Part shown: positions 3,388 to 34,239 of the stretch, in pieces
How the letters are laid out: each line of letters opens with the position of its first letter
Position numbering within the stretch: position 1 is the first letter of the stretch
DNA from: Streptomyces sp. PCS3-D2
GTDB lineage: Bacteria; Actinomycetota; Actinomycetes; Streptomycetales; Streptomycetaceae
DNA: 64,000 nucleotides
NCBI RefSeq assembly: GCF_000612545.2
Contig: NZ_CP097800.1
Coordinates: forward strand, 1,240,001-1,304,000
Direction: 5' to 3'
Translations under genes and position numbers: made by a program
Notes under the pieces: model-generated
What the model was told of the DNA's origin: nothing
The model's input: only the letters and a program-made list of their open reading frames with translations
The model's database searches: none

Positions 3388-3798
3388 CCGGCTGACGCAC
3401 CGACCGGCTGACGGGGCGCGGCCGCCACGCGCCCGAGCCGCGCGGACGCCGCGGCGGAGGCGGGGCGGAGGCGGGGCGGAGGCGGGACGGATGGCGGGGC
3501 GGTGCCGCCCGGGCGTCGCCCGGTGGGCGCCGTTCCACGCTGTGAGCGCCGGCCGCCTCCGTCCCTGCCGCGGCGCCCACCGGCGGGGCGGACCTCGGAC
3601 CGACGGGGTCCGTGGGGTGCTCGGGCGGGTCCACAGGGTCCTGCGCACGCGTCCCGGCCGTCAAGGCGGGAGCCGCAGACCACCTCCTGGCGTGATTCTG
3701 CCCTTTCGTTTCCCTGTCGGACCCGCCCATACTGCATAGATAACTGGATGTAACCGGACATAGGTACACGCGGGGCTTGGCTGGCCTTGATGTCGCGC
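3388..3798. other. Intergenic region between the ABC-F and desaturase genes
   Basis: About 410 bp with no convincing gene. The first half is extremely GC-rich and contains a short tandem repeat. The last 100 bp is less GC-rich, with segments such as TACTGCATAGATAACTGG (about 3728-3745), where the desaturase promoter probably lies. Confidence 0.5.
3452..3492 (+). repeat. GGCGGGGCGGA tandem repeat
   Basis: Imperfect head-to-tail copies of an 11-bp purine-rich unit. The G-runs on one strand could form a G-quadruplex. Nothing ties it to a function. Confidence 0.5.
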
Positions 3799-3861: not shown

Positions 3862-4833
3862 GTGACGATCACCTCTCCCCACCTCGGCAGCTCGGAGGCG
3901 TGGACCGACGCCAAGCTGCTGTACGCGCTGGAAGAGGTGGTCGAGAAGGAGCTCAACCGCCACCTGAAGGTCACCAAGGACTGGATGCCCCACGAGTACG
4001 TCCCCTGGAGCGACGGCCGGAACTTCCCCGGCTTCTTCGAGGACGGCGAGGCCTGGGACCCGCAGCAGTCCAAAGTCACCGACATCGGCAAGATCGCGCT
4101 GGTCGTGAACCTGCTGACCGAGGACAACCTCCCCAGCTACCACCACGAGATCGCGACCCTCTTCGGCCGCAACGGCGCCTGGGGCACCTGGGTGCACCGC
4201 TGGACGGCCGAGGAGGGCCGCCACGGCATCGTGATGCGCGACTACCTGCTGGCCTCGCGCGCCGTGGACCCGGACAAGCTGGAAGCGTTCCGCATGCAGC
4301 ACATGTCGGAGGGCTTCGAATCCGACAACCGGCACTCCATGCTGCACTCGGTCGCCTACGTGGCCTTCCAGGAGCTCGCCACGCGCATCTCGCACCGCAA
4401 CACCGGCCACCAGTCCGGCGACCCGGTCTGCGACCGCATGCTGGCGCGCATCGCGCAGGACGAGAACCTGCACATGATCTTCTACCGCAACCTGCTGGGC
4501 GCGGCCTTCGAGCTCGCCCCGGACCTGACCATGCAGGCGGTGCGGGACGTCGTCGTCAACTTCCGGATGCCCGGACACGGCATGCCCGGCTTCGAGCGCA
4601 TGGCCGCCCAGATGGCCATCGGCGGGGTCTACAACCTGCGGATCCACCACGACGACGTGCTGGCTCCGGTCCTGCGCTTCCTCAAGGTCATGGACATCGC
4701 CGGCCTCGGCCCGGAGGGCCAGAAGGCCCAGGACGAGCTCGGCCTGTTCATGAACGGCCTGAACTCCGAGGCCACGAAGTTCGACGAGAAGCTGGCCGCC
4801 CGCGCTGCCCGCATGGCGGCCCGCAAGGGCTGA
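3862..4833 (+). CDS. Acyl-ACP desaturase (stearoyl-ACP 9-desaturase type)
   Basis: 323 aa. Soluble di-iron desaturase that would introduce a cis double bond into acyl-ACP using ferredoxin and O2, for membrane unsaturation. The two carboxylate/His metal motifs are present: EEGRH in the middle and DENLH later, as in the FA_desaturase_2 family. The GTG at 3862 is preferred over the upstream in-frame ATG at 3790 because AGGAG sits at 3852-3856 and the upstream stretch is the operator palindrome. Stand-alone gene, probably controlled through the palindrome at 3799-3836. Confidence 0.9.
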   Translation: MTITSPHLGSSEAWTDAKLLYALEEVVEKELNRHLKVTKDWMPHEYVPWSDGRNFPGFFEDGEAWDPQQSKVTDIGKIALVVNLLTEDNLPSYHHEIATLFGRNGAWGTWVHRWTAEEGRHGIVMRDYLLASRAVDPDKLEAFRMQHMSEGFESDNRHSMLHSVAYVAFQELATRISHRNTGHQSGDPVCDRMLARIAQDENLHMIFYRNLLGAAFELAPDLTMQAVRDVVVNFRMPGHGMPGFERMAAQMAIGGVYNLRIHHDDVLAPVLRFLKVMDIAGLGPEGQKAQDELGLFMNGLNSEATKFDEKLAARAARMAARKG

Positions 4834-25608: not shown

Positions 25609-25698
25609 GCCGGCACCTCACCCGGCCGGCCGCGCCGCCGCCGGGAAAGCCGCCGAACCCCTGGTCACCTGCCGGTCGCACCACCGCCCGGAAACGCA

Positions 25699-25749
25699 AA
25701 AAACCCCAGGTGAACTGGGGTTCCTGCTGGTGTCCGAGGGGGGACTTGA
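25699..25749 (+). repeat. attL-like direct repeat (displaced tRNA-Leu 3' end)
   Basis: 51 bp matching 34123-34173 with one difference (C versus T at 25715/34139). It contains the tRNA terminator dyad CCCCAG-GTGAA-CTGGGG and then the CCA, acceptor and T-arm end of tRNA-Leu. The match stops at 25750, marking the crossover region. Confidence 0.88.
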
Positions 25750-25918: not shown

Positions 25919-26278
25919 TCAGGACTTTTCGATGACCTCGAAGATGTCGGCGTCCGTCTCCTGCTGCCATGCCGGGAGGTCGGGCCAATCGGCGACGTAC
26001 CCCGCCTTGGGGTCCTCGAAGTGCTTGAACATCTGCGCTGTCCAGCACGTCGCGACGAACCGGCCCTTCTGCTCCCGGGACAGCTTGGCCGTGTGGCCGT
26101 CACTGAGCTCGATGAACTGGCGGACCTGCTCGTAGACGGCGCCTGCGGCGTCGCGCTCCCACTGCGGCGTGTCCTCCCAGGGGGCGACGTACCCGGCCTT
26201 GGGCTCCCCCGGGAAGTGACGGCGAACCCCATCGATCCAGGCTTCCCGGAACACTCGTGCGCCTTCGACCTGCGACAT
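25919..26278 (-). CDS. Conserved hypothetical with internal duplication
   Basis: 119 aa from ATG 26276-26278 (AGAGGGG upstream). Two related halves are visible: HFPGEPKAGYVAPWEDTPQW near residue 22 and HFEDPKAGYVADWPDLPAW near residue 85, each followed by an acidic helix (DAAGAVYEQV; ETDADIFEVI). I know this type only as a Streptomyces protein of unknown function, often beside XRE regulators. It lies 14 bp after the regulator gene in the same direction, probably one operon. The repeated GYV-x-x-W-x-x-x-P-x-W unit may be a small peptide- or nucleic-acid-binding motif (inference). Confidence 0.7.
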   Translation of the reverse strand: MSQVEGARVFREAWIDGVRRHFPGEPKAGYVAPWEDTPQWERDAAGAVYEQVRQFIELSDGHTAKLSREQKGRFVATCWTAQMFKHFEDPKAGYVADWPDLPAWQQETDADIFEVIEKS

Positions 26279-26292
26279 GCCAACCCCTCTCG

Positions 26293-27549
26293 TCACGGCG
26301 TGCTCAGCGTGGCGATCTCCGCCCCCAACTCCGCTACGCGGTGGTCCTTGCTCAGGGGGCCGAACTCATCGCACAGGGCTTGGAGTCTACGGGCGACGTA
26401 TCCGGACGATGATGCTTGGGCCAACTGGACGGCCTCCCGTCCGTACGCGACGACTTGTTCGGGGTCTCGCCGCTTGGCGCCGATGGCGGCGAGATCGGTC
26501 AGTACCGAGCCTCTGCGTCGGTAGGACTGGCCGGACGCAAGCTCGGTCTGTTGAAGCGCACCCTTCAGGGTCTCCTCCGCCAGATCGAGGCGTCCAAGCT
26601 GGACGTAGCGTGCGCCCCGTTCCTCGGCCAGGCGGCTGCCATCGAAGCGCAGCCATCCACCGTTGACGCTGTCCTCGGTCAGCTCCGTGACCTTCTCCGC
26701 CTGGTCGAGCGCACGCTCGCACCCGTTCAGGTCTCCCATGCCGGCGCATGCCTCGGCCTGAACTGCGGCGACCCAGCACCGCGTGGCGAGGGTGCTGTCT
26801 CCCCGTCCGGCCAGCCTCTCGGCCAGTGACAGGAGCTGCGTGGCCTGGCGGTATCGTTGATCCGACATGTCCACGTAGGCGTGCCGTACAAGGGCGCAAG
26901 CCCACAGGTCGAAGGCTCCGGCGTCCTTGCTGACGGAGGCGGCCAGGGCGTAGGACGCTGCGGCGTCCGTGTACCGGTTGGCGTCGAAGGCGACCTCCCC
27001 GGCCAACTGGAAGAGGTCAGCCGCTGCGTGCAGGAGCGGGCGGGAGTTACCCCGGTTGCCTGCTGCCAGAGCTTCGTTCAGCGTCGCGAGCTGGTCACGG
27101 ACGACGGGGTAGACAGAACCCTTGGAACGGGCCAGTTGGTACACCTGCCACTGGTGGCTGTTCATCCGCAGGGAGCCGGATGGTGCGCCCCGGCGCACCC
27201 CCTCCGTGAGAGCCTCGGCCTCATCCAGCGGCAAGGCGGTGAGGGCTCCGCTGACTGTGAGGATGCGGAGTAATTCGCGGCGGATCATGTCGTCGGGGTC
27301 TCCCGCGCCTGGGTGGTCACTGGACTGGTGCCCTGTGGCTTCCTGGCTGGCGGCTGTTGGCTGCGTCAGGAGGGCGTCAAGCTCGATGAGGGTGACTTCG
27401 AGGGCGTTGGCCAAGCCCCGTCGCTGAGGTGGCTGGGGTTCGATCCTGCCGCTCTCCCAGCGTCCGACCGTTGTTCGGTCTACCCCGAGTAACTGAGCCA
27501 ATTTCTCCTGACTGTAGCCCAGGGCTTTACGTCGTTCCGCCAGTCCCAT
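26293..27549 (-). CDS. XRE-family regulator with TPR-like C-terminal domain
   Basis: 418 aa. N-terminal HTH at about residues 3-58 (ALGYSQEKLAQLLGVDRTTV, then GRWESG), followed by ~300 residues of helical TPR-like repeats (e.g. RYTDAAASYALAASVSKDAG and GRLDLAEETLKGALQQ). This is the Streptomyces form of TPR regulators that bind small signals or peptides. ATG 27547-27549; the upstream extension of the frame is not supported. Divergent from the small-protein/peptide genes, which makes it the likely controller of the island's cassette. Confidence 0.85.
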   Translation of the reverse strand: MGLAERRKALGYSQEKLAQLLGVDRTTVGRWESGRIEPQPPQRRGLANALEVTLIELDALLTQPTAASQEATGHQSSDHPGAGDPDDMIRRELLRILTVSGALTALPLDEAEALTEGVRRGAPSGSLRMNSHQWQVYQLARSKGSVYPVVRDQLATLNEALAAGNRGNSRPLLHAAADLFQLAGEVAFDANRYTDAAASYALAASVSKDAGAFDLWACALVRHAYVDMSDQRYRQATQLLSLAERLAGRGDSTLATRCWVAAVQAEACAGMGDLNGCERALDQAEKVTELTEDSVNGGWLRFDGSRLAEERGARYVQLGRLDLAEETLKGALQQTELASGQSYRRRGSVLTDLAAIGAKRRDPEQVVAYGREAVQLAQASSSGYVARRLQALCDEFGPLSKDHRVAELGAEIATLSTP

Positions 27550-27704: not shown

Positions 27705-27977
27705 ATGGCAGCACAGAACGAGACGTCAGACGGTTACCAAGGGTCCGGACGGACTCCGGATCTTGGCGTCGAGCCTCGCGTTCTCATGACGCTTCGGGTA
27801 TCGCGTGACTCCGGCCGCACCTGGGAACAGGGCACCAGCGTGAAGGCGGGCGACCCGTTCGTCATCCTCTCCGACCCCGGCCGGTATCCGCCATGCCTCT
27901 GCGGTCGGTGCACGGATAACAGCTCGCCGTCCGCCAGTTCGCTGCGTCAGGCCACGATCGAGCCGAGCACGACGTGA
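27705..27977 (+). CDS. Small hypothetical protein upstream of the peptide cassette
   Basis: 90 aa starting at ATG 27705 with GGAAGG at 27691-27696. The middle reads like a small beta-strand protein (VLMTLRVSRDSGRTWEQG; GDPFVILSDPG), followed by a CLCGRC cysteine cluster that might bind a metal. Not recognised. Its stop overlaps the next ATG (TGATG), coupling it to the mini membrane protein. Confidence 0.55.
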   Translation: MAAQNETSDGYQGSGRTPDLGVEPRVLMTLRVSRDSGRTWEQGTSVKAGDPFVILSDPGRYPPCLCGRCTDNSSPSASSLRQATIEPSTT

Positions 27978-28096
27978 TGTCGGGCTTAGGCAACTGGGTT
28001 CTGCGCCGGTTCGGCCGGTACGCAGGGGTGCTCTGCCTGGCCGTGATCTTCGGCGGTGTGGCGGTGTTCTTCGCCGGAGCCCTTGCGACGCGGTAG
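27977..28096 (+). CDS. Mini membrane protein (39 aa)
   Basis: Starts at ATG 27977-27979 inside the previous stop codon. A short amphipathic, basic N-terminus (WVLRRFGRYAG) leads into one hydrophobic helix (VLCLAVIFGGVAVFFAGAL). Leu4 is encoded by TTA (27986-27988), so bldA may gate its synthesis. Small enough to be missed by gene callers. Could be an immunity, export or toxin-like peptide (inference). Confidence 0.5.
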   Translation: MSGLGNWVLRRFGRYAGVLCLAVIFGGVAVFFAGALATR

Positions 28097-28126
28097 CCGC
28101 CTCGAAGGCTGCTGCCTCCCGTTCCT

Positions 28127-28146
28127 CCCGCCGGACTCCCGGCGGG
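28127..28146 (+). terminator. Hairpin just before the peptide gene
   Basis: Perfect 8-bp stem CCCGCCGG/CCGGCGGG with a 4-nt loop, followed by TGTTTCC, 26 bp before the 45-aa peptide ATG. May end the preceding mini-operon or act as an attenuator for the cassette. Confidence 0.5.
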
Positions 28147-28172
28147 TGTTTCCGAGTGGAGAGGTAAGACCG

Positions 28173-28310
28173 ATGGTGGAAGAGAACACCGGATCGGTGG
28201 CGCCCGAGGGGGGTGGCCTGCTCGTCGCGAAGCGGAAGATCGTCGCCGCGCGCACCCGCGCCGAGCAGGAGTCGGACGTCAGCAGTGGCCGTTCCGACGG
28301 CAACGACTGA
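28173..28310 (+). CDS. 45-aa putative precursor peptide
   Basis: ATG 28173 with GGAGAGGTAAG 7-16 nt upstream, a strong ribosome-binding site. The peptide has an acidic/Gly start (MVEENTGSVAPEGGG), a basic middle (KRKIVAARTR) and a Ser/Asp-rich tail (ESDVSSGRSDGND). It has no Cys, Trp, Tyr, Phe or His, so it is not a lanthipeptide, sactipeptide or thiopeptide precursor. It lies 14 bp upstream of the JmjC oxygenase gene in the same transcription unit, the arrangement expected of a RiPP precursor and its tailoring enzymes. Not a recognised family. Confidence 0.55.
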   Translation: MVEENTGSVAPEGGGLLVAKRKIVAARTRAEQESDVSSGRSDGND

Positions 28311-28324
28311 CGGGAGCGCCCACG

Positions 28325-29515
28325 GTGCTTGATGCAGCCTCGTGGGCGGGGCGTCTGGGCGGGGACGCGTTCCTCGCCCAGACGTACCACCGCTCCTACG
28401 CCCACTTCCCCGGTACCGCCGACATGGCGAGTGACCTGTTCTCCTGGGACGACCTGAATCGGATCATTGCTTCGCAGCGACTGGAGCCGCCCCGGCTGCG
28501 CCTGTCGGCCGACGGCGAGATGGTCCCGCTCCACCGCTACGCGATCCCGACCACGAACCGCCGCGCGGTCACCTGGTCCCGCATCCAGCCGGACGAGCTG
28601 CACACCCAGCTCAGAGAGGGTGCGTCGCTGGTCCTCGACGCGGTGGAGAAGATCCACCCTGCTGTGGGGGTGACGGCTGAGGGGCTGGAACGCTTCCTCG
28701 GGACTTCCGTGCAGGCCAACGTGTACGCCTCGTGGACTGAGCGGGAGGGCTTCGGCCGGCACTGGGACGACCACGATGTGGTGGTGGTCCAGTTGCACGG
28801 CTCGAAGCGGTGGCGCCTGTACGGGTCCACCCGTGAGGCCCCTACCTTCCGGGACGTGGAGTCCCCGGAGGAGCCGGAGGGCGACCCGGTGGCGGACATC
28901 GTTCTGTCCCCCGGTGACGTGCTCTACCTGCCGCGTGGCTGGTGGCACGCGGTCACCGCTGACCAGGGGACGGAGTCCCTTCACCTCACGTTCGGCATGG
29001 TCCCGCACACGGGGGCAGACCTCATGCTCTGGGTGGTCGACCAACTCCGGGCGTCCCTCGCTCTGCGCAGGGACATCCCGCGGTTTGCCTCTCTGCCTGA
29101 GCAGTCGGAGTTCATCGACGCCGTACGTCGTGAGGTGCTGGACACGATGGCGGACCCCCGCTTGATCGAGCGGTGGGCGGAGTCCACCGACACGACCGAC
29201 CTGGGCCACGCGATCCCCTCCCTCCCGTACGTGGACGGGCTCCCCGCGCGGGCAGAGATCACGGTCAAGTTGACCGCCCCGAGGAGCCGCCTGGCGGCGA
29301 ACCCCACACATGGCACGGTGACGTTCTCGGCGGCCGGTACCGCCTGGGACTTCGCCGAGTCCGCCGCGCCGGTTCTCGGCACGCTGCTGACCGGTCAGCC
29401 GACCACGCTCGGAGCCCTGGCGGACTCCGCCGGGCTGGAGGTTAAGGACGTGGCCGAACTGGCCTGGGCTCTGATCGAGGGCCAGGCGCTCGCAGTCGTG
29501 GGGACGGGGTTGTGA
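28325..29515 (+). CDS. JmjC/cupin-type Fe(II)/2-oxoglutarate oxygenase (ROX-like)
   Basis: 396 aa from GTG 28325. The JmjC barrel has the iron triad HxD (H146-D148 in GRHWDDHD) and the distal His (H208 in LPRGWWHAV), plus the QLHGSKRWRLYG strand typical of ribosomal-oxygenase-like proteins (NO66, MINA53, YcfD). A helical middle and a C-terminal winged-helix-like segment (about 335-396) complete the ROX layout. Family members hydroxylate protein side chains. Beside a small peptide gene, the substrate may be that peptide; a ribosomal protein is the alternative. Its stop overlaps the next start (GTGA). Confidence 0.8.
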   Translation: MLDAASWAGRLGGDAFLAQTYHRSYAHFPGTADMASDLFSWDDLNRIIASQRLEPPRLRLSADGEMVPLHRYAIPTTNRRAVTWSRIQPDELHTQLREGASLVLDAVEKIHPAVGVTAEGLERFLGTSVQANVYASWTEREGFGRHWDDHDVVVVQLHGSKRWRLYGSTREAPTFRDVESPEEPEGDPVADIVLSPGDVLYLPRGWWHAVTADQGTESLHLTFGMVPHTGADLMLWVVDQLRASLALRRDIPRFASLPEQSEFIDAVRREVLDTMADPRLIERWAESTDTTDLGHAIPSLPYVDGLPARAEITVKLTAPRSRLAANPTHGTVTFSAAGTAWDFAESAAPVLGTLLTGQPTTLGALADSAGLEVKDVAELAWALIEGQALAVVGTGL

Positions 29516-30417
29516 CCGCCGTCCTCTCCCTGGGGACGTACCGCGTGCGTGCCGTCGGTCTGGCGGCGCGCACCGCCCTGGCGGCCGGTAGCCCGTGGGT
29601 GGACACCGCACCCAGCTACGCCCACGGTCGGGCACACGAGGAGCTGCGCCCGGTTCTCGGGGAGTACCCGACTGTGCGGGTAGCCACGAAGGCAGGGTTC
29701 TTTACGGCGGAACAGGGCCGTGCCGCTCTGGCCGAAGGCGTGCTCACTCAGGAGGAGGCAGCGAGCAGGCACAGTCTGGAGCGGGCCTTCATCCGCTGGC
29801 AGACGGAGCGCTCGTTGGCCGCGCTCGGCCGCGCGGACCTGGTCTTCGTGCACAACCCGGAGCACCACGGGCACGGCCTCGACCGTGCCGCTCTGCACTG
29901 GCGTGTACGGGAAGCCTTCACGGCGCTGGAAGAGTTCGCCCAAGCGGGCAGGATCGGCGGGTACGGCGTCGCCACCTGGTCGGGCCTGGTAAGCGGGGCG
30001 TTCACCGTTCCCGAGCTGCACGCGCTTGCCCGGCAGGCGGCGGGTTCCGCCGAGCCCCACTTCACGGGGTTGCAGATGCCCGTCAGCCTGATCATGGACG
30101 ACCTGATCAGACAGGCACTGGACGGCGGCGGATCGCTGATGCAGGCGAAGGACGCGGGGTTGATCACGTTCGGCTCTGCACCCCTGCACGGCGGCGAACT
30201 CTTGAATGCCATGACACCCGAGCTGGTGAACTTCATCCGCCCCGGTCTGTCGGCCGCAGCCGCTGCCCTGCTGGCTGCTGGCTCGTGCCCCGGTCTCGAT
30301 GTCGTCCTTACCTCCGCGAGCACCCGTGAACACTGGGACGATGCGGCGAAGGCTCTGGCTGCGCCCCTGACGGCTGAGGAACTGAGGAGGGTGACCGATG
30401 AACTCGCCGCCGAGTGA
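29512..30417 (+). CDS. Aldo/keto reductase family protein
   Basis: 301 aa, GTG start overlapping the JmjC stop. TIM-barrel features of AKR enzymes: WVDTAPSYAHGRAHE (Asp and catalytic Tyr), VATKAGFF (Lys), DLVFVHNPEHH (His region) and IGGYGVATW. Distant from canonical members in the C-terminal half, so the cofactor-binding loop is uncertain. In this context it may oxidise or reduce a modified residue of the peptide, after hydroxylation by the JmjC protein. Confidence 0.8.
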   Translation: MTAVLSLGTYRVRAVGLAARTALAAGSPWVDTAPSYAHGRAHEELRPVLGEYPTVRVATKAGFFTAEQGRAALAEGVLTQEEAASRHSLERAFIRWQTERSLAALGRADLVFVHNPEHHGHGLDRAALHWRVREAFTALEEFAQAGRIGGYGVATWSGLVSGAFTVPELHALARQAAGSAEPHFTGLQMPVSLIMDDLIRQALDGGGSLMQAKDAGLITFGSAPLHGGELLNAMTPELVNFIRPGLSAAAAALLAAGSCPGLDVVLTSASTREHWDDAAKALAAPLTAEELRRVTDELAAE

Positions 30418-31252
30418 GGACGTACAGACCCTGATGGAGGCTGCCCACGACAGGGCGGCGAAGGCTCTGGGTCTCACGTGTACCGGTTCGCTGGCCTGGG
30501 GGTTCCAAGGTGTGACCCTCGGTCGGCAGGCGGGGGAGCACTGGCTCCGGGTAGGCCGGACGGCCAGGAGAAACGCGGGCAGGAAGCAGGGAGAGGGCAT
30601 CGTGGGGGCTTCCCTGCTGGTGCCTGATGCGGTCCCGCGCCCGCGCCTGTACGACGTCCACGACTGGACTGACGAGGAGTGGGCCTTCGAGGCCGAAGTC
30701 CTCGACTACGTGACGCACCCCGTCGTGTCCCCGGAGCGGGCCGACCTGGACCGCGACCCCGGCTTGCCTGCCGAGTGGTGGGCCGACCTGTGCCGAGCCC
30801 TGGCCCTGCTCGCTGGGGCGGAGGGAGTGAAGGTCACTGTCCGGGACGGGTGGATCGAACGCGCATTCCCCCAGTTCCTCGGCATCCCTGCCCCGACCAA
30901 GGTGGAGCGGGTGACCGGTCATGGTGACCTGCACTGGGGCAACCTCACGACCACGCCTCTGACCCTGCTGGACTGGGAGCGGTGGGGCCTGGTGCCCTAC
31001 GGCTACGACGCGGGTCTTCTTCACACGAACAGCCTGCTCGTTCCCGATGTGGCGGACCGCATCCGGCTGGAGTTCGCTTCGGTTCTGGACACCCCAGCCG
31101 GCCGAGTCGGGGAGCTTGCGGCCCTGGCGGAGATGCTGCAAGCCGTAGCCCGTGGCTGGTATCCGGACCTGGCTCCGCGCCTACTCGCTCGGGCGGAGTC
31201 ACTCACGGGCGTTCGGCCGCCGGTCCCACTCCACTCCGAGGTCAGCGGCTGA
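30398..31252 (+). CDS. APH-type phosphotransferase
   Basis: 284 aa. Kinase-like fold of the aminoglycoside phosphotransferase family: catalytic loop HGDLHWGN (H175, D177, N182) and metal-binding LLDWERWG (D192). The N-terminal Lys-containing lobe is short and divergent. The ATG at 30398 lies 20 nt inside the upstream gene, so it is translationally coupled. APH-like kinases phosphorylate small molecules or, in class V lanthipeptide and thioamitide pathways, peptide Ser/Thr residues. The precursor's Ser-rich tail would be a possible substrate. Confidence 0.82.
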   Translation: MNSPPSEDVQTLMEAAHDRAAKALGLTCTGSLAWGFQGVTLGRQAGEHWLRVGRTARRNAGRKQGEGIVGASLLVPDAVPRPRLYDVHDWTDEEWAFEAEVLDYVTHPVVSPERADLDRDPGLPAEWWADLCRALALLAGAEGVKVTVRDGWIERAFPQFLGIPAPTKVERVTGHGDLHWGNLTTTPLTLLDWERWGLVPYGYDAGLLHTNSLLVPDVADRIRLEFASVLDTPAGRVGELAALAEMLQAVARGWYPDLAPRLLARAESLTGVRPPVPLHSEVSG

Positions 31253-31320: not shown

Positions 31321-31477
31321 TCAGGCGCTCTCTCCGAGGTGCCGGTACAACGTGGCACGACCGATTCCCAGGGCCTTGGCGATGGCTGTGACGCTGTCTC
31401 CCTTGGCGTGCCGGGCACGGGCTACGGCGAGCTTGTCGTCATCCACAACGGACGGACGACCGCCGACGTTGCCCTTA
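31321..31477 (-). pseudogene. C-terminal part of a split serine recombinase
   Basis: Encodes GNVGGRPSVVDDDKLAVARA and an HTH ending in GRATLYRHLGESA, the DNA-binding end of a resolvase/invertase-type recombinase. The other part is at 33154-33290. Removing the IS and one TTA copy restores the reading frame across AARK-GNVGG. Confidence 0.75.
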
Positions 31478-31590
31478 GAGGCTGTTGTCTTTCCGAGTTT
31501 GATGACGGCGTTTTCGCTGGTCAGGGGTAGTGGTGGCGTCCGTGTGGGAGTGATGGATCGTTGTTTTCGTCGCTCTCGTGGAGGTCGCGG

Positions 31591-32139
31591 ATGCCGTCGG
31601 TTGTCGGACTGCTGGAACAGCACGAGCTTGCCGCCCGTCGTCGCGTGGACGGGCTGCGCGAGGAAGCCGACCGGATCCAGGCCGAGCTCGCGGCGGCCGA
31701 GCAGGAGTGGCTGGAGTGGACGATCGCCCGTGAGCGTGTGGGTGCCGTGCTGTCCGCGCCGGGCGGGTGTCCGGCCGACGCGGTGGCCGCCGAACGACCG
31801 GGCGGTGCCGGGACGGATGCCGGGGTGCAGGCGTCCGTGCCGGTGGCGGCGAAGGCGAAGTCGCAGGTTCCGGTGTGGCGCGAGGGGCTGGCCGTGACGG
31901 CATTGTCGGCGGACTATCAGCGCATCCTGGCCGCGCTCGCGGACCGGGTCCGTCTCGGTCAGGGCCCGCTGACCTGCCAGGAGATGGCCTCCGCCTTCGG
32001 CATGGAGACGGTGCCGGCCAAGGTGGAGGCCCTGCGGTCGAAGGCGAAACGCCTGGCCGCGCGGGGCTGGCTGGCCGAGCCTGCGCCGGGCCGGTTCACG
32101 CTCGCGCGGAACGTGAGCGGGTCAGGCGGCGGGTCATGA
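31591..32139 (+). CDS. IS accessory protein
   Basis: 182 aa from ATG 31591 (GGAGG at 31580-31584). A predicted coiled-coil N-terminus (LLEQHELAARRRVDGLREEA) is followed by a linker and a C-terminal winged-helix-like domain (TCQEMASAFGMETVPAKVEAL; KRLAARGWL). Transcribed towards the transposase gene and overlapping its 3' end by 44 bp antisense. This type of passenger protein accompanies IS5-like elements in Streptomyces; its role in transposition is unclear. Confidence 0.6.
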   Translation: MPSVVGLLEQHELAARRRVDGLREEADRIQAELAAAEQEWLEWTIARERVGAVLSAPGGCPADAVAAERPGGAGTDAGVQASVPVAAKAKSQVPVWREGLAVTALSADYQRILAALADRVRLGQGPLTCQEMASAFGMETVPAKVEALRSKAKRLAARGWLAEPAPGRFTLARNVSGSGGGS

Positions 32140-33013
32140 CCATGGTCATCGACCAGTAGATCATCGCCTCGGCGCTGGTGGTGCGGCGTTCGAAGTCGCG
32201 GACCAGGCGGCGGCTTCGCATCAGGTGGGCGAAGAGCCGCTCGACGATCCACCGCTTGGGCAGCACCACGAAGCCGCGCCTGTCGTCGCTGCGCTTGACG
32301 ATCGCCAGGACCAGGGCGAGCGTGGCCAGGCAGTGCTCGACGAGGCTGCCGGTGTAGCCGCCGTCGGCCCAGACGAGTTCCAGCCGGTGGTGGGCATCGG
32401 CCGCCCGCTCAAGCAGCACCTTCGCGGCGGCGCGGTCGCCGATGTCCGCGCTCGTGACCATCACGCCCAGCAGCAGGCCGAGGGTGTCGACCACGACATG
32501 CCGCTTGCGCCCGTTGATCAGCTTCCCGCCGTCGAACCCGCGGCTGTCGGCGCCGACCACGGCGTCCGCCTTGACCGACTGCGAGTCGATCACGCCGGCC
32601 GTCGGCTCCGCATCCCGACCCGCCTCCTGGCGGACCCGGCCACGCAGCCGGTCATGAAACTCCTGGACCAGCACGTGGTCGCGCCAGCGGCGGAAGAATG
32701 CATAGACCCGGTCCCACGGCGGGAAGTCGCCGGGCATCGCCCGCCACTTGATCCCGTTGTCCACGAGATAGCGGATCGCGTCCAGTATCGCCCGGTGGCA
32801 GTACGCCTCCGGCTGCCCGCCGCGGCCGCGCATCCAGCCCGGCACCGGCAACAGTGGCCGGACCACGGCCCACTCCGCGTCCGTCATGTCCGAGGGATAC
32901 CGCCGAACACGCTCCGGATGATCGGCCGCATTCCCGAACCTGTGAGCGACACAATCACACGACGGTGCAGCCGAGTTGGACTTCACCGGCGTGAGCACGT
33001 ACAACTGCGGCAA
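32096..33013 (-). CDS. IS5-family transposase
   Basis: 305 aa, apparently intact. DDE chemistry: first Asp in GVIDSQSVKAD, second in VWADGGYTG, and the Glu in KRWIVERLFAHLMRSRRL. The N-terminus has the family-typical YPSDMTDAEWAVVRPLLP. The TTG start (33011-33013) follows AGGAGA; ATG at MTDAEW is the conservative alternative. The complete ORF and intact ends suggest a recently active element. Confidence 0.88.
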   Translation of the reverse strand: MPQLYVLTPVKSNSAAPSCDCVAHRFGNAADHPERVRRYPSDMTDAEWAVVRPLLPVPGWMRGRGGQPEAYCHRAILDAIRYLVDNGIKWRAMPGDFPPWDRVYAFFRRWRDHVLVQEFHDRLRGRVRQEAGRDAEPTAGVIDSQSVKADAVVGADSRGFDGGKLINGRKRHVVVDTLGLLLGVMVTSADIGDRAAAKVLLERAADAHHRLELVWADGGYTGSLVEHCLATLALVLAIVKRSDDRRGFVVLPKRWIVERLFAHLMRSRRLVRDFERRTTSAEAMIYWSMTMVMTRRLTRSRSARA

Positions 33014-33153
33014 CAGGGTCTCCTGGATCTCGGTTGGCTTCGCAACCCCGAGCTACCAAGAGGCCCTGCCTTCATGCCCGCGGCCAGCCGCGATCACCCG
33101 ATCGAGACTCCCGTTCGACGCCCACCCCTCAAGATCGGAACGACAACAGCTAC

Positions 33154-33290
33154 TTACGGGCCGCAGCCTCCAACCCCTCCAACGTCTTCTCTCGGATGCC
33201 CTCTCGCTCCACCTCGGCACTGACGGCGAGCACCGCGAACACGATGGCACCTGCCCCGTTCGGGTTGTACTCCGCAATGCCTCTGTGCAG
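33154..33290 (-). pseudogene. Catalytic-domain fragment of the split serine recombinase
   Basis: The minus strand encodes YNPNGAGAIVFAVLAVSAEV and EREGIREKTLEGLEAAARK, the end of the resolvase catalytic domain plus the long E-helix. It stops at the IS boundary. Upstream (minus strand) the homology is lost after about 15 more codons; the frame seems shifted, so the N-terminus with the catalytic Ser is missing. Confidence 0.65.
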
Positions 33291-33566
33291 CCCTCTACCT
33301 GCTCCAGCGTTTCCCGCCTCAGCCGTGGCTTCTTGCGGGCGCCGTAGTGATGCTCGAACCACTGGAGCCGAGCGGGATCCTGTATCTCGGCCGAGATCGC
33401 GCCACGGTTTCACGGCCTGTCAGCGCCTGATGCTGATGGGACCCAGGGAGAGCACGGTGTCCGCGAGTGCGTCAGTCAGCGCCCGTGAGCGTGCGCCGGG
33501 CGGCACGGAGGCTTGTTCCACGTCGACAAGAGGGAAGCGCACACTGCACCGGCTTCTCGTCGCCAT
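33291..33566. other. Mosaic of gene fragments, no intact gene
   Basis: Both strands have short open stretches that look protein-like for 15-35 residues but do not join: for example minus-strand RLQWFEHHYGARKKPRLRRE and VLVDGDEKPVQCALPSCRR. The region seems to be deletion scar between the recombinase and integrase relics. Confidence 0.4.
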
Positions 33567-34063
33567 CTACCAGCACGGTCGTGGTCGAAGAGGGCAACAC
33601 CTACCGGCTTCGGAAGCTGACCAAGGACGGAGACGACAACGCGATCATCTACGTGGAGCAAGCCCTGATGAACGTCCTGAAGTGGCAGAAGGAACGCCAG
33701 GACGCAGAGCGGGAACGGCTCGGGGATCTCTGGTTGGACCATGACCTCGTGTTCGCCCGTGACGGCTTCAAGCTGTACCGGGGCGAGGCAGGCGGACCGC
33801 AGGACCCCGAGAAGATGTCGGCCCGCTGGCGGACGGCACGCAACCGTCTGCATCTGCCGGAGAACTTCCGGCCGCACGACTGGCGGGCATCGAAGATCAC
33901 AAACGATCTGGACGCCCACGAGAACCCGGTAGATGTCTCAGCCAATGCCCGGCACCACTCGCCGGGCTACACCATGGCGCGGTACGGCAGGCGTCGAGCC
34001 GAGGGGGCGAAGAAGCTGGCCGCTTCGAGCGCCAGCCGTATCGGCCTGTCATCCCTGGTCTGA
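33567..34063 (+). pseudogene. Tyrosine integrase C-terminal relic
   Basis: Encodes the C-terminal half of a phage-type integrase: YVEQALMNVLKWQKERQ, then HDWRAS (His/Arg of the active site), ARHHSPGYTMARYG with the distal His and the nucleophile Tyr, ending 60 bp before attR. The arm-binding and core-binding domains and the first catalytic Arg are missing, and the frame upstream (to 33467) does not look like integrase. The position next to the tRNA is that of an island integrase. Confidence 0.78.
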
Positions 34064-34122
34064 CCAGAAAGTTCGCTCGGCTGTTGGTCACATGGTTGGT
34101 CACGCCACAGTCGGAGAAACAG

Positions 34123-34173
34123 AAAAACCCCAGGTGAATTGGGGTTCCTGCTGGTGTCCGAGGGGGGACTTGA
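34123..34173 (+). repeat. attR-like direct repeat at the tRNA-Leu 3' end
   Basis: Second copy of the 51-bp repeat at 25699-25749. Its last 22 bases belong to the intact tRNA gene (acceptor/T arm including CCA), the rest to the tRNA's terminator dyad. Confidence 0.88.
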
Positions 34174-34239
34174 ACCCCCACGCCCGATAAAGGGCACTAG
34201 CACCTCAAGCTAGCGCGTCTGCCATTCCGCCACCCGGAC
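34152..34239 (-). tRNA. tRNA-Leu (anticodon GAG)
   Basis: 88 nt including an encoded CCA. The acceptor stem pairs GTCCGGG with CTCGGAC. The anticodon stem CTAGC/GCTAG encloses TTGAGGT (anticodon GAG). A long variable arm (class II) and TTC-containing T loop (GGGTTCAAGTCCC) are present. It reads CTC leucine codons. It remains complete after island integration because the 3' end is duplicated. Confidence 0.95.

What the first reader, a model, noticed from the sequence alone, without database searches (positions are those of the whole stretch)
27705..31252. Compact peptide/JmjC/aldo-keto reductase/APH-kinase cassette: candidate new RiPP-like pathway
Six co-directional genes lie close together. 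A 90-aa protein and a 39-aa membrane peptide (TGATG overlap) are followed by a 45-aa basic peptide with a strong ribosome-binding site. Then come a ROX-like JmjC oxygenase, an AKR and an APH-type kinase, all translationally coupled. None of the usual RiPP class-defining enzymes (YcaO, LanB/C, radical SAM, ATP-grasp) is present. Seen in sequence: gene order, overlaps, JmjC triad H146/D148/H208, kinase motifs. Known: JmjC enzymes hydroxylate side chains; APH-like kinases act on peptide Ser/Thr in class V lanthipeptide and thioamitide pathways. Inference: the peptide is hydroxylated, redox-modified and phosphorylated. The C-terminal winged helix of the JmjC protein could serve as the recognition element.
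Basis: partly seen in the sequence, partly recalled or inferred. Interest (0 to 1): 0.85.

Follow-up and report, generated by a model that had tools for sequence, protein, structure and literature searches.

The report
New RiPP-like peptide-modification cassette in streptomycetes
A tiny peptide gene travels with three enzyme genes (an oxygenase, a reductase and a kinase) in many soil bacteria, which points to an undescribed pathway in which the cell makes a small peptide and then chemically remodels it.

Summary
The core is four genes: a 45-aa peptide (28173-28310), a ROX-type JmjC oxygenase, an AKR and an APH-fold kinase; the 90-aa and 39-aa ORFs are accessory. JmjC-first: peptide upstream in 88 of 90 loci. 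Peptide-first: JmjC downstream in 30 of 30 fetched places. AKR-first: 25 of 30 loci have peptide and JmjC, the other 5 are truncated. The genome has a second copy (L002). A divergent family II has ROX, AKR, a usually inverted kinase gene, and a related peptide with another C-terminus in 30 of 30 fetched loci. Residues 15-45 are under purifying selection. No recurrent protease or transporter was seen; an NsdA-related HTH regulator is often divergent upstream. In family I, loci without AKR carry Gly where AKR loci carry Ser/Thr, but in one clade, so one event. Best reading: a new RiPP-like class with a ROX hydroxylase as key enzyme. All chemistry is inferred. The paper searches found no description; one possibly relevant paper and one supplementary table could not be read.

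The parts
28173..28310 (+). Putative precursor peptide, 45 aa; C-terminal motif SDVSSGRSDGND
   Evidence: homologues upstream of JmjC in 88 of 90 loci; dN/dS about 0.23
28158..28164 (+). GGAGAGG, likely ribosome-binding site of the peptide
   Evidence: Read; the stretch before the start codon of each homologue is printed
28215..28271 (+). Residues 15-33 GLLVAKRKIVAARTRAEQE: conserved leader segment, proposed recognition part
   Evidence: Alignment A1; few non-synonymous changes; similar LL segment in family II peptides
28272..28307 (+). Residues 34-45 SDVSSGRSDGND: proposed core
   Evidence: D35, G39, D42, N44, D45 invariant in 47 aligned sequences
28325..29515 (+). ROX-type JmjC (2OG/Fe) oxygenase, 396 aa
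29258..29506 (+). C-terminal winged-helix-like domain of the JmjC protein (residues 312-394): strands, three helices, a strand
   Evidence: DSSP on the model; ROXA-like_wH weak, E 0.023
29512..30417 (+). Aldo-keto reductase, 301 aa; D31, Y36, K60, H114 (AKR tetrad by recall)
   Evidence: Aldo_ket_red 6.1e-16; these residues invariant in 20 of 20 aligned
30398..31252 (+). APH/choline-kinase-fold kinase, 284 aa; H175, D177, N182, D192 (catalytic motifs by recall)
26293..27549 (-). Divergent HTH regulator of the NsdA family (TPR-like by the NCBIfam name)
   Evidence: NF053720 1.2e-41; a family member is also divergent beside the second cassette of the genome; related genes within 6 kb upstream in 74 of 124 loci, 66 on the opposite strand
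27705..27977 (+). 90-aa ORF, accessory
   Evidence: 29 of 79 loci; weak BNR_2 match
27977..28096 (+). 39-aa hydrophobic ORF, accessory
   Evidence: 22 of 79 loci
25919..26296 (-). 125-aa ORF downstream of the regulator, accessory
   Evidence: 13 of 79 loci, mostly those with a close copy of the regulator; no Pfam or NCBIfam family

Best explanation
It is a RiPP-like biosynthetic cassette of a class not described in the literature that I could search. The ribosome makes a precursor of about 31-55 aa. A segment (GLLVAxRxIxAARxR) guides it to the ROX-type JmjC oxygenase, perhaps through that enzyme's winged helix. The short C-terminus (in family I SD...G[RKV][ST]DxND) is the core. Most likely order: JmjC hydroxylates a core or adjacent residue (Asp, Asn or Arg); the AKR carries out an NADP(H)-linked step that in family I depends on the Ser/Thr at position 41; the APH-fold kinase phosphorylates the other conserved Ser/Thr of the core. 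The core varies little within a lineage and no recurrent protease or exporter was seen, so the product is more likely a conserved signal or cofactor-like molecule than a diversified antibiotic. SHOWN by computation: co-occurrence, conservation, predicted folds, conserved catalytic residues. INFERRED: every chemical step, their order, leader binding, processing and function.
For: JmjC-first: peptide upstream in 88 of 90 loci whose JmjC tblastn score is 150 bits or more (72 distinct readings; 20 of 110 loci under that score left out; the 90 include the window and its second copy). One of the two misses, L011, has a family II peptide. Peptide-first: profile hits at E 0.01 in 47 of 294 genomes; of 55 places the 30 fetched first, one per genome, all have JmjC downstream and 26 have AKR. 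AKR-first over 288 genomes: of 39 places 30 were fetched, 25 with peptide and JmjC, 5 truncated. The profiles were built from loci that reappear among these hits. Of 129 loci scored together 109 hold all four genes on one strand. Family II: related peptide in 30 of 30 fetched loci (25 by pattern; 5 read by eye); of 25 examined 25 have AKR and 24 a kinase within 2.8 kb, 23 of them on the opposite strand, so the link is not mere operon inheritance. Selection: peptide dN/dS about 0.23 over 33 distinct genes; residues 15-45 change mostly synonymously, residues 2-14 not. In L207 and L211 peptide and JmjC decayed together. Folds. A JmjC enzyme modifies a RiPP precursor in biphenomycin biosynthesis (BipG, PMC12707348, passages).
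Against: No reaction was measured. RiPP cores usually vary more than leaders (recalled); here the C-terminus is among the most constant parts. No peptidase or exporter recurs nearby (only ORF families of 80 aa or more in 8 or more loci would show). The winged helix is a general ROX feature (recalled). The AKR-Ser/Thr link rests on one clade. L210 keeps JmjC and APH with only a stump of the peptide. Two IMG/VR loci with family II peptides, L296 and L297, have JmjC and APH but no AKR by profile. Distant ROX homologues (L146-L170) show no peptide, AKR or APH by tblastn, so the link holds only for this branch of ROX.
Confidence: 0.78

Rival explanations
1. The peptide is not a precursor but a small protein partner: an activator, decoy or regulatory subunit of the ROX enzyme, which then acts on ribosomes or another protein.
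For: The closest solved folds are ribosomal oxygenases NO66, MINA53 and YcfD. The peptide is short, basic in the middle and constant, as a partner could be.
Against: AKR and APH also stay linked, even when the kinase gene is inverted, which is hard to explain for a plain ribosomal hydroxylase. The C-terminal motif differs between families I and II while the LL segment is kept, as in leader-core precursors.
Confidence: 0.12
2. The three enzymes tailor a small molecule, and the ORF is a translated leader or attenuator that only regulates them.
For: The ORF ends 5-21 nt before the aligned start of JmjC in 87 of the 88 loci.
Against: Amino-acid sequence is conserved, not only position: dN/dS about 0.23, and synonymous changes prevail in residues 15-45. 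Similar peptides occur in another family of the order (L008, L009).
Confidence: 0.05
3. A chance small ORF next to unrelated genes.
For: GC-rich DNA has many ORFs; 100 of 35 aa or more overlap this 10-kb stretch.
Against: Three entry points (JmjC, peptide, AKR) give the same cassette.
Confidence: 0.01

Closest known systems
Biphenomycin pathway (BipG / BpmG / PbsQ JmjC hydroxylases)
   Same: A JmjC 2OG oxygenase modifies a ribosomal precursor peptide (passages of PMC12707348 and PMC12257519).
   Different: Those clusters have MNIO, B12 radical SAM, arginase, HExxH hydroxylase and TldD protease. Here AKR and an APH-fold kinase are the partners, and no such other enzyme family came up among recurrent neighbours; it was not searched for by name.
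Class V lanthipeptides (LxmK / SprPT) and thioamitides
   Different: Their kinase works with a HopA1-type protein, which did not come up among recurrent neighbours here (not searched by name); no Cys in the family I peptides printed.
ROX ribosomal oxygenases (YcfD, NO66, MINA53)
   Same: Predicted fold over nearly the whole length and the Fe ligands.
   Different: Encoded with a conserved peptide, AKR and kinase; 17-24% identity to the solved ROX proteins.
JmjC (PF08007) proteins with RRE-like domains, noted by Bregman et al. 2025
   Same: Same Pfam family; strands followed by three helices at the C-terminus. The paper says that bacterial homologues of the eukaryotic ones lie in RiPP-like contexts.
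   Different: In the section read, no precursor, AKR or kinase is named (PMC12710340, section 6). Its reference 45 (Xia et al. 2025, 2OG-dioxygenase macrocyclization in RiPPs) is not held and could overlap.
RRNPP peptide-receptor pairs
   Same: HTH regulator of a TPR-like family divergent from a small peptide gene.
   Different: RRNPP known from recall and the search listing only; here the peptide has modifying enzymes, and no receptor function was tested.

Membership tests
RiPP pathway (general) | Short precursor gene conserved beside modifying enzymes | tested here: met
RiPP pathway (general) | Leader-core organisation of the precursor | tested here: inconclusive
   LL-containing segment shared by two families with different C-termini, but the core is more constant than usual
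RiPP pathway (general) | Enzymatic modification of the peptide | not testable with these tools
   Needs mass spectrometry
RiPP pathway (general) | Protease or exporter nearby (frequent, not required) | tested here: inconclusive
   ORF clustering in 113 loci; 7 recurrent families scanned with Pfam gave regulators, DUF6879, an ATPase and mobilisation proteins, one without a match; the rest were judged by eye
Class V lanthipeptide / thioamitide | APH-type kinase plus HopA1-type protein | tested here: inconclusive
   Kinase fold present; HopA1 not searched by name
Class V lanthipeptide / thioamitide | Cys in core for thioether or AviCys rings | tested here: not met
   No Cys in the family I peptides printed
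ROX JmjC oxygenase | JmjC fold with HxD...H and C-terminal winged helix | tested here: met
ROX JmjC oxygenase | Hydroxylates a ribosomal protein | not testable with these tools
   No assay
RRE-containing RiPP enzyme | Three strands then three helices, binding the leader | tested here: inconclusive
   Order of elements fits from residue 312, with a fourth strand; binding not tested, domain shared by ROX proteins
RRNPP quorum sensing | HTH-TPR receptor that binds the peptide | not testable with these tools
   Only adjacency shown

The most novel reading that the evidence does not exclude
A modified-peptide signalling system: the oxygenase, reductase and kinase convert the precursor into an intracellular or exported signal, and the divergent NsdA-family HTH regulator is its receptor. 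This would be an actinobacterial counterpart of RRNPP quorum sensing with post-translational modification of the signal, carried on chromosomes, a tRNA-linked element and plasmids, with two signal families.
Probability: 0.22. Interest if true: 0.92.

Novelty: new variant of a known kind. Interest (0 to 1): 0.76.

Why it matters
If true, it adds a RiPP class that would be missed by methods built on YcaO, LanB/LanM, radical SAM or ATP-grasp bait enzymes, and puts ROX-type JmjC oxygenases, known for ribosomal proteins, in the role of key RiPP enzyme. It is common enough to study: family I peptide hits at E 1.5e-5 or better in 36 of 294 genomes of the order and family II JmjC in 34 of 297 genomes of the family. 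Many of the records are named culture-collection strains, so the product can be sought at once.

Tried and rejected
Rejected: the 90-aa and 39-aa ORFs as core parts. AKR loss with Gly at position 41 as repeated events: the tree (quick method) gives one clade of 10 plus L197, so the link is a lead; L109 and L205 appear to be the same contig. L202 (contig end), L197 (JmjC lacks its C-terminal part, no AKR or APH), L207 and L211 (peptide and JmjC decayed) as counter-examples; L210 stays as a near-exception. ROX homologues L146-L170: no peptide, AKR or APH by tblastn, taken as ordinary ROX genes. Neighbourhood clustering printed many ORF families that I judged spurious by eye; 7 were scanned with Pfam. 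The JmjC dN/dS of 0.38 came from an ungapped comparison anchored at the 3' end and may be inflated, so I do not compare it with the peptide's.

Not examined: 10 weak peptide places (E 0.0019-0.0098), partial AKR places G067:C24, G118 and G115, 5 places, and relatives beyond the best 80 of 177.

Led nowhere: Rfam over the window gave only ASdes, ZMP-ZTP and tRNA. Paper searches gave no description of the cassette. The decRiPPter paper was read by passages; its supplementary table of candidate families was not opened (no supplement look-ups allowed), so a prior listing there is not excluded. PMC13118837 speaks of cupins in general in the passages seen. A JmjC-peptide complex could not be predicted. 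Absence of other families from the fold searches is not evidence.
Full report
OBSERVATION. The peptide, JmjC, AKR and APH genes are spaced or overlapped as in an operon. The window lies at 1.24-1.30 Mb of contig C1 of the 7.63-Mb genome G000.

SECOND COPY. The same genome holds a second cassette at 1.97 Mb with a 55%-identical JmjC protein. Its peptide, MNENAPTEQASGLLISVRRINAARSRAEEASDNTGGKSDMNDT, AKR and APH are in the same order.

JMJC FIRST. A scan of genome contigs found 177 relatives and kept the best 80, giving 79 loci from Streptomyces, Kitasatospora, Streptacidiphilus, Wenjunlia and one record titled Actinobacteria bacterium. With 31 loci this made 110. Of the 90 with a JmjC score of 150 bits or more, 88 carry the peptide. 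In 87 it ends 5-21 nt before the aligned start of JmjC. In L078 the two halves of JmjC lie about 2.5 kb apart and the peptide precedes the first half. The loci are not independent: 72 peptide readings are distinct, one of them (L103) with an uncertain start. The 20 loci left out are distant ROX genes; among them L012-L014 turned out to be family II, and L016 and L021 match the family II profile, with AKR, APH and a weak peptide hit.

PEPTIDE FIRST. A profile of 47 peptides (A1) found 55 places in 47 of 294 genomes at E 0.01, 36 of them with a place at E 1.5e-5 or better. The 30 places fetched first, one per genome, all have JmjC directly downstream and 26 have AKR. Fifteen more were looked at. 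The stronger ones again had JmjC (L002, L185, L191, L202-L206). L207 (two places) and L211 are decayed cassettes with JmjC fragments. L208, L209 and L212 showed no JmjC hit at all. L213 is family II. Ten weak places were not fetched.

AKR FIRST. A profile of 20 AKRs found 39 places in 33 of 288 genomes. Of 30 loci fetched, 25 have peptide, JmjC, AKR and at least part of APH. In L273, L281, L283 and L292 JmjC is truncated or cut by a contig end; L293 has only a partial AKR and a scrap of APH.

FAMILY II. L011-L014 and L213 have a ROX JmjC at about 30% identity and an AKR, and the kinase often on the opposite strand. A typical peptide is GLLVAVQELTAVHDRYDSLRSDNQGSSGDAPWPGGDGNLHDSE. A search of 297 genomes of the family found such JmjC genes in 34 genomes of 8 of 17 genera. 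All 30 fetched loci have the peptide (25 by pattern; 5 read by eye). Of 25 examined, 25 have AKR and 24 a kinase within 2.8 kb, 23 of these on the opposite strand, 1 on the same; L253 lacks a near one. The family I profile scores 13-24 bits at the peptide in 18 of these 25, so homology is likely but not strong. C-termini differ (GDGNLHDSE, DGLNHAA, DGLNLPQE, DLNLPKE), while an LL[VI]xVExL...DR segment stays. In IMG/VR, L296 and L297 have a peptide of this kind, JmjC and APH but no AKR by profile.

PEPTIDE ANATOMY. In family I, besides M1, residues L16, D35, G39, D42, N44 and D45 are invariant in 47 sequences, and A25, A26, R27, R29 and S34 nearly so. In 33 distinct genes of the window's clade dN/dS is about 0.23. 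Per codon, residues 15-33 show 0.17 synonymous and 0.06 non-synonymous differences, residues 34-45 0.15 and 0.06, residues 2-14 0.10 and 0.21.

AKR AND POSITION 41. Of 123 loci with a peptide, those with AKR have Ser (93) or Thr (17) before the final DxND, and one is family II without the motif. Those without AKR have Gly (10) or Ser (2: L202 at a contig end and the incomplete L197). In the tree the AKR-less rows other than L197 form one clade, so this is one historical event. It suggests that the AKR step involves this Ser/Thr.

SURROUNDINGS. Clustering of ORFs in 113 loci gave as largest recurrent families that Pfam recognises an HTH regulator (61 loci), a DUF6879 protein (47), an HTH_31-DUF5753 regulator (39) and an HATPase_c_2 protein (26), with relaxase (9) and MobC/NikA-like (8) further down; no protease or transporter among the 7 families scanned. 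By an iterated profile of the window's NsdA-family regulator, a related gene lies within 6 kb upstream in 74 of 124 loci, 66 of them on the opposite strand. Both cassettes of G000 have an NsdA-family gene on the opposite strand within 0.8 kb of the peptide gene; the genome has 16 places over the family cut-off in 7.63 Mb. This looks unlikely by chance, but random genes were not tested. In family II, 13 of 20 longer loci show a related gene divergent upstream. JmjC relatives also lie on plasmids: 153 records match, 37 over at least 80% of the query, the 30 listed at 46-85% identity; the three regions read hold the cassette or its AKR-less form. In one of them the peptide is missing from the PLSDB gene table, which is incomplete. 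One of five IMG/VR loci, L294, holds a full family I cassette. The window's cassette lies between the copies of a 76-bp direct repeat at 25674 and 34098; the second copy overlaps a tRNA-Leu gene, which fits an integrated element.

LITERATURE. JmjC hydroxylases act on a RiPP precursor in biphenomycin biosynthesis (PMC12707348 and PMC12257519, passages). Bregman et al. (PMC12710340: abstract, passages, section 6, two of three parts of the reference list) remark that bacterial homologues of RRE-bearing eukaryotic JmjC (PF08007) proteins appear in RiPP-like contexts. No paper found describes this cassette. Xia et al. 2025 could not be read and might overlap.

VERDICT. The four-gene cassette is real and conserved, and most simply explained as a RiPP-like pathway with a ROX hydroxylase. 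What it makes, and whether it signals through the NsdA-family regulator, is open and directly testable.

Noticed in passing
25674-25749 and 34098-34173: 76-bp direct repeat, 84% identical (nearly exact in its last 47 bases), the second copy overlapping the end of tRNA-Leu (34152-34239): likely attachment sites of an 8.4-kb element that holds the cassette.
   Followed up: partly
31321-34063: IS4/5-type transposase (32096-33013) lies between two ORFs that look by eye like recombinase or resolvase pieces (31321-31623, 33150-33413); a phage-integrase-like piece (weak, E 0.13) at 33467-34063.
   Followed up: no
4213-4280: Rfam ASdes sRNA family match on the minus strand, 75 bits, a family named there as a TB sRNA.
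   Followed up: no
L294-L298: IMG/VR contigs carry ROX JmjC genes with family I or II-like peptides, so prophage-like elements may move them.
   Followed up: partly
L296 and L297, about 3620-3740: Family II-like peptide (DNLVI...GGDGLNIPE) with JmjC and APH but no AKR by profile, in which the Ser of the usual SD is Gly: possibly a second AKR loss.
   Followed up: no
G000 whole genome: 23 places match the NsdA family at E 1e-5, 16 over the cut-off: many regulators whose ligands are unknown.
   Followed up: no
L295:3887: A further peptide type (VVAVEQLSVVRGRMDAVHSDGAQDAGGDGHGDAGGDGLNIPESS) beside JmjC and AKR: more core types probably exist.
   Followed up: no
113 loci around the cassette: DUF6879 proteins in 47 loci and HTH_31-DUF5753 regulators in 39 loci recur upstream.
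   Followed up: no
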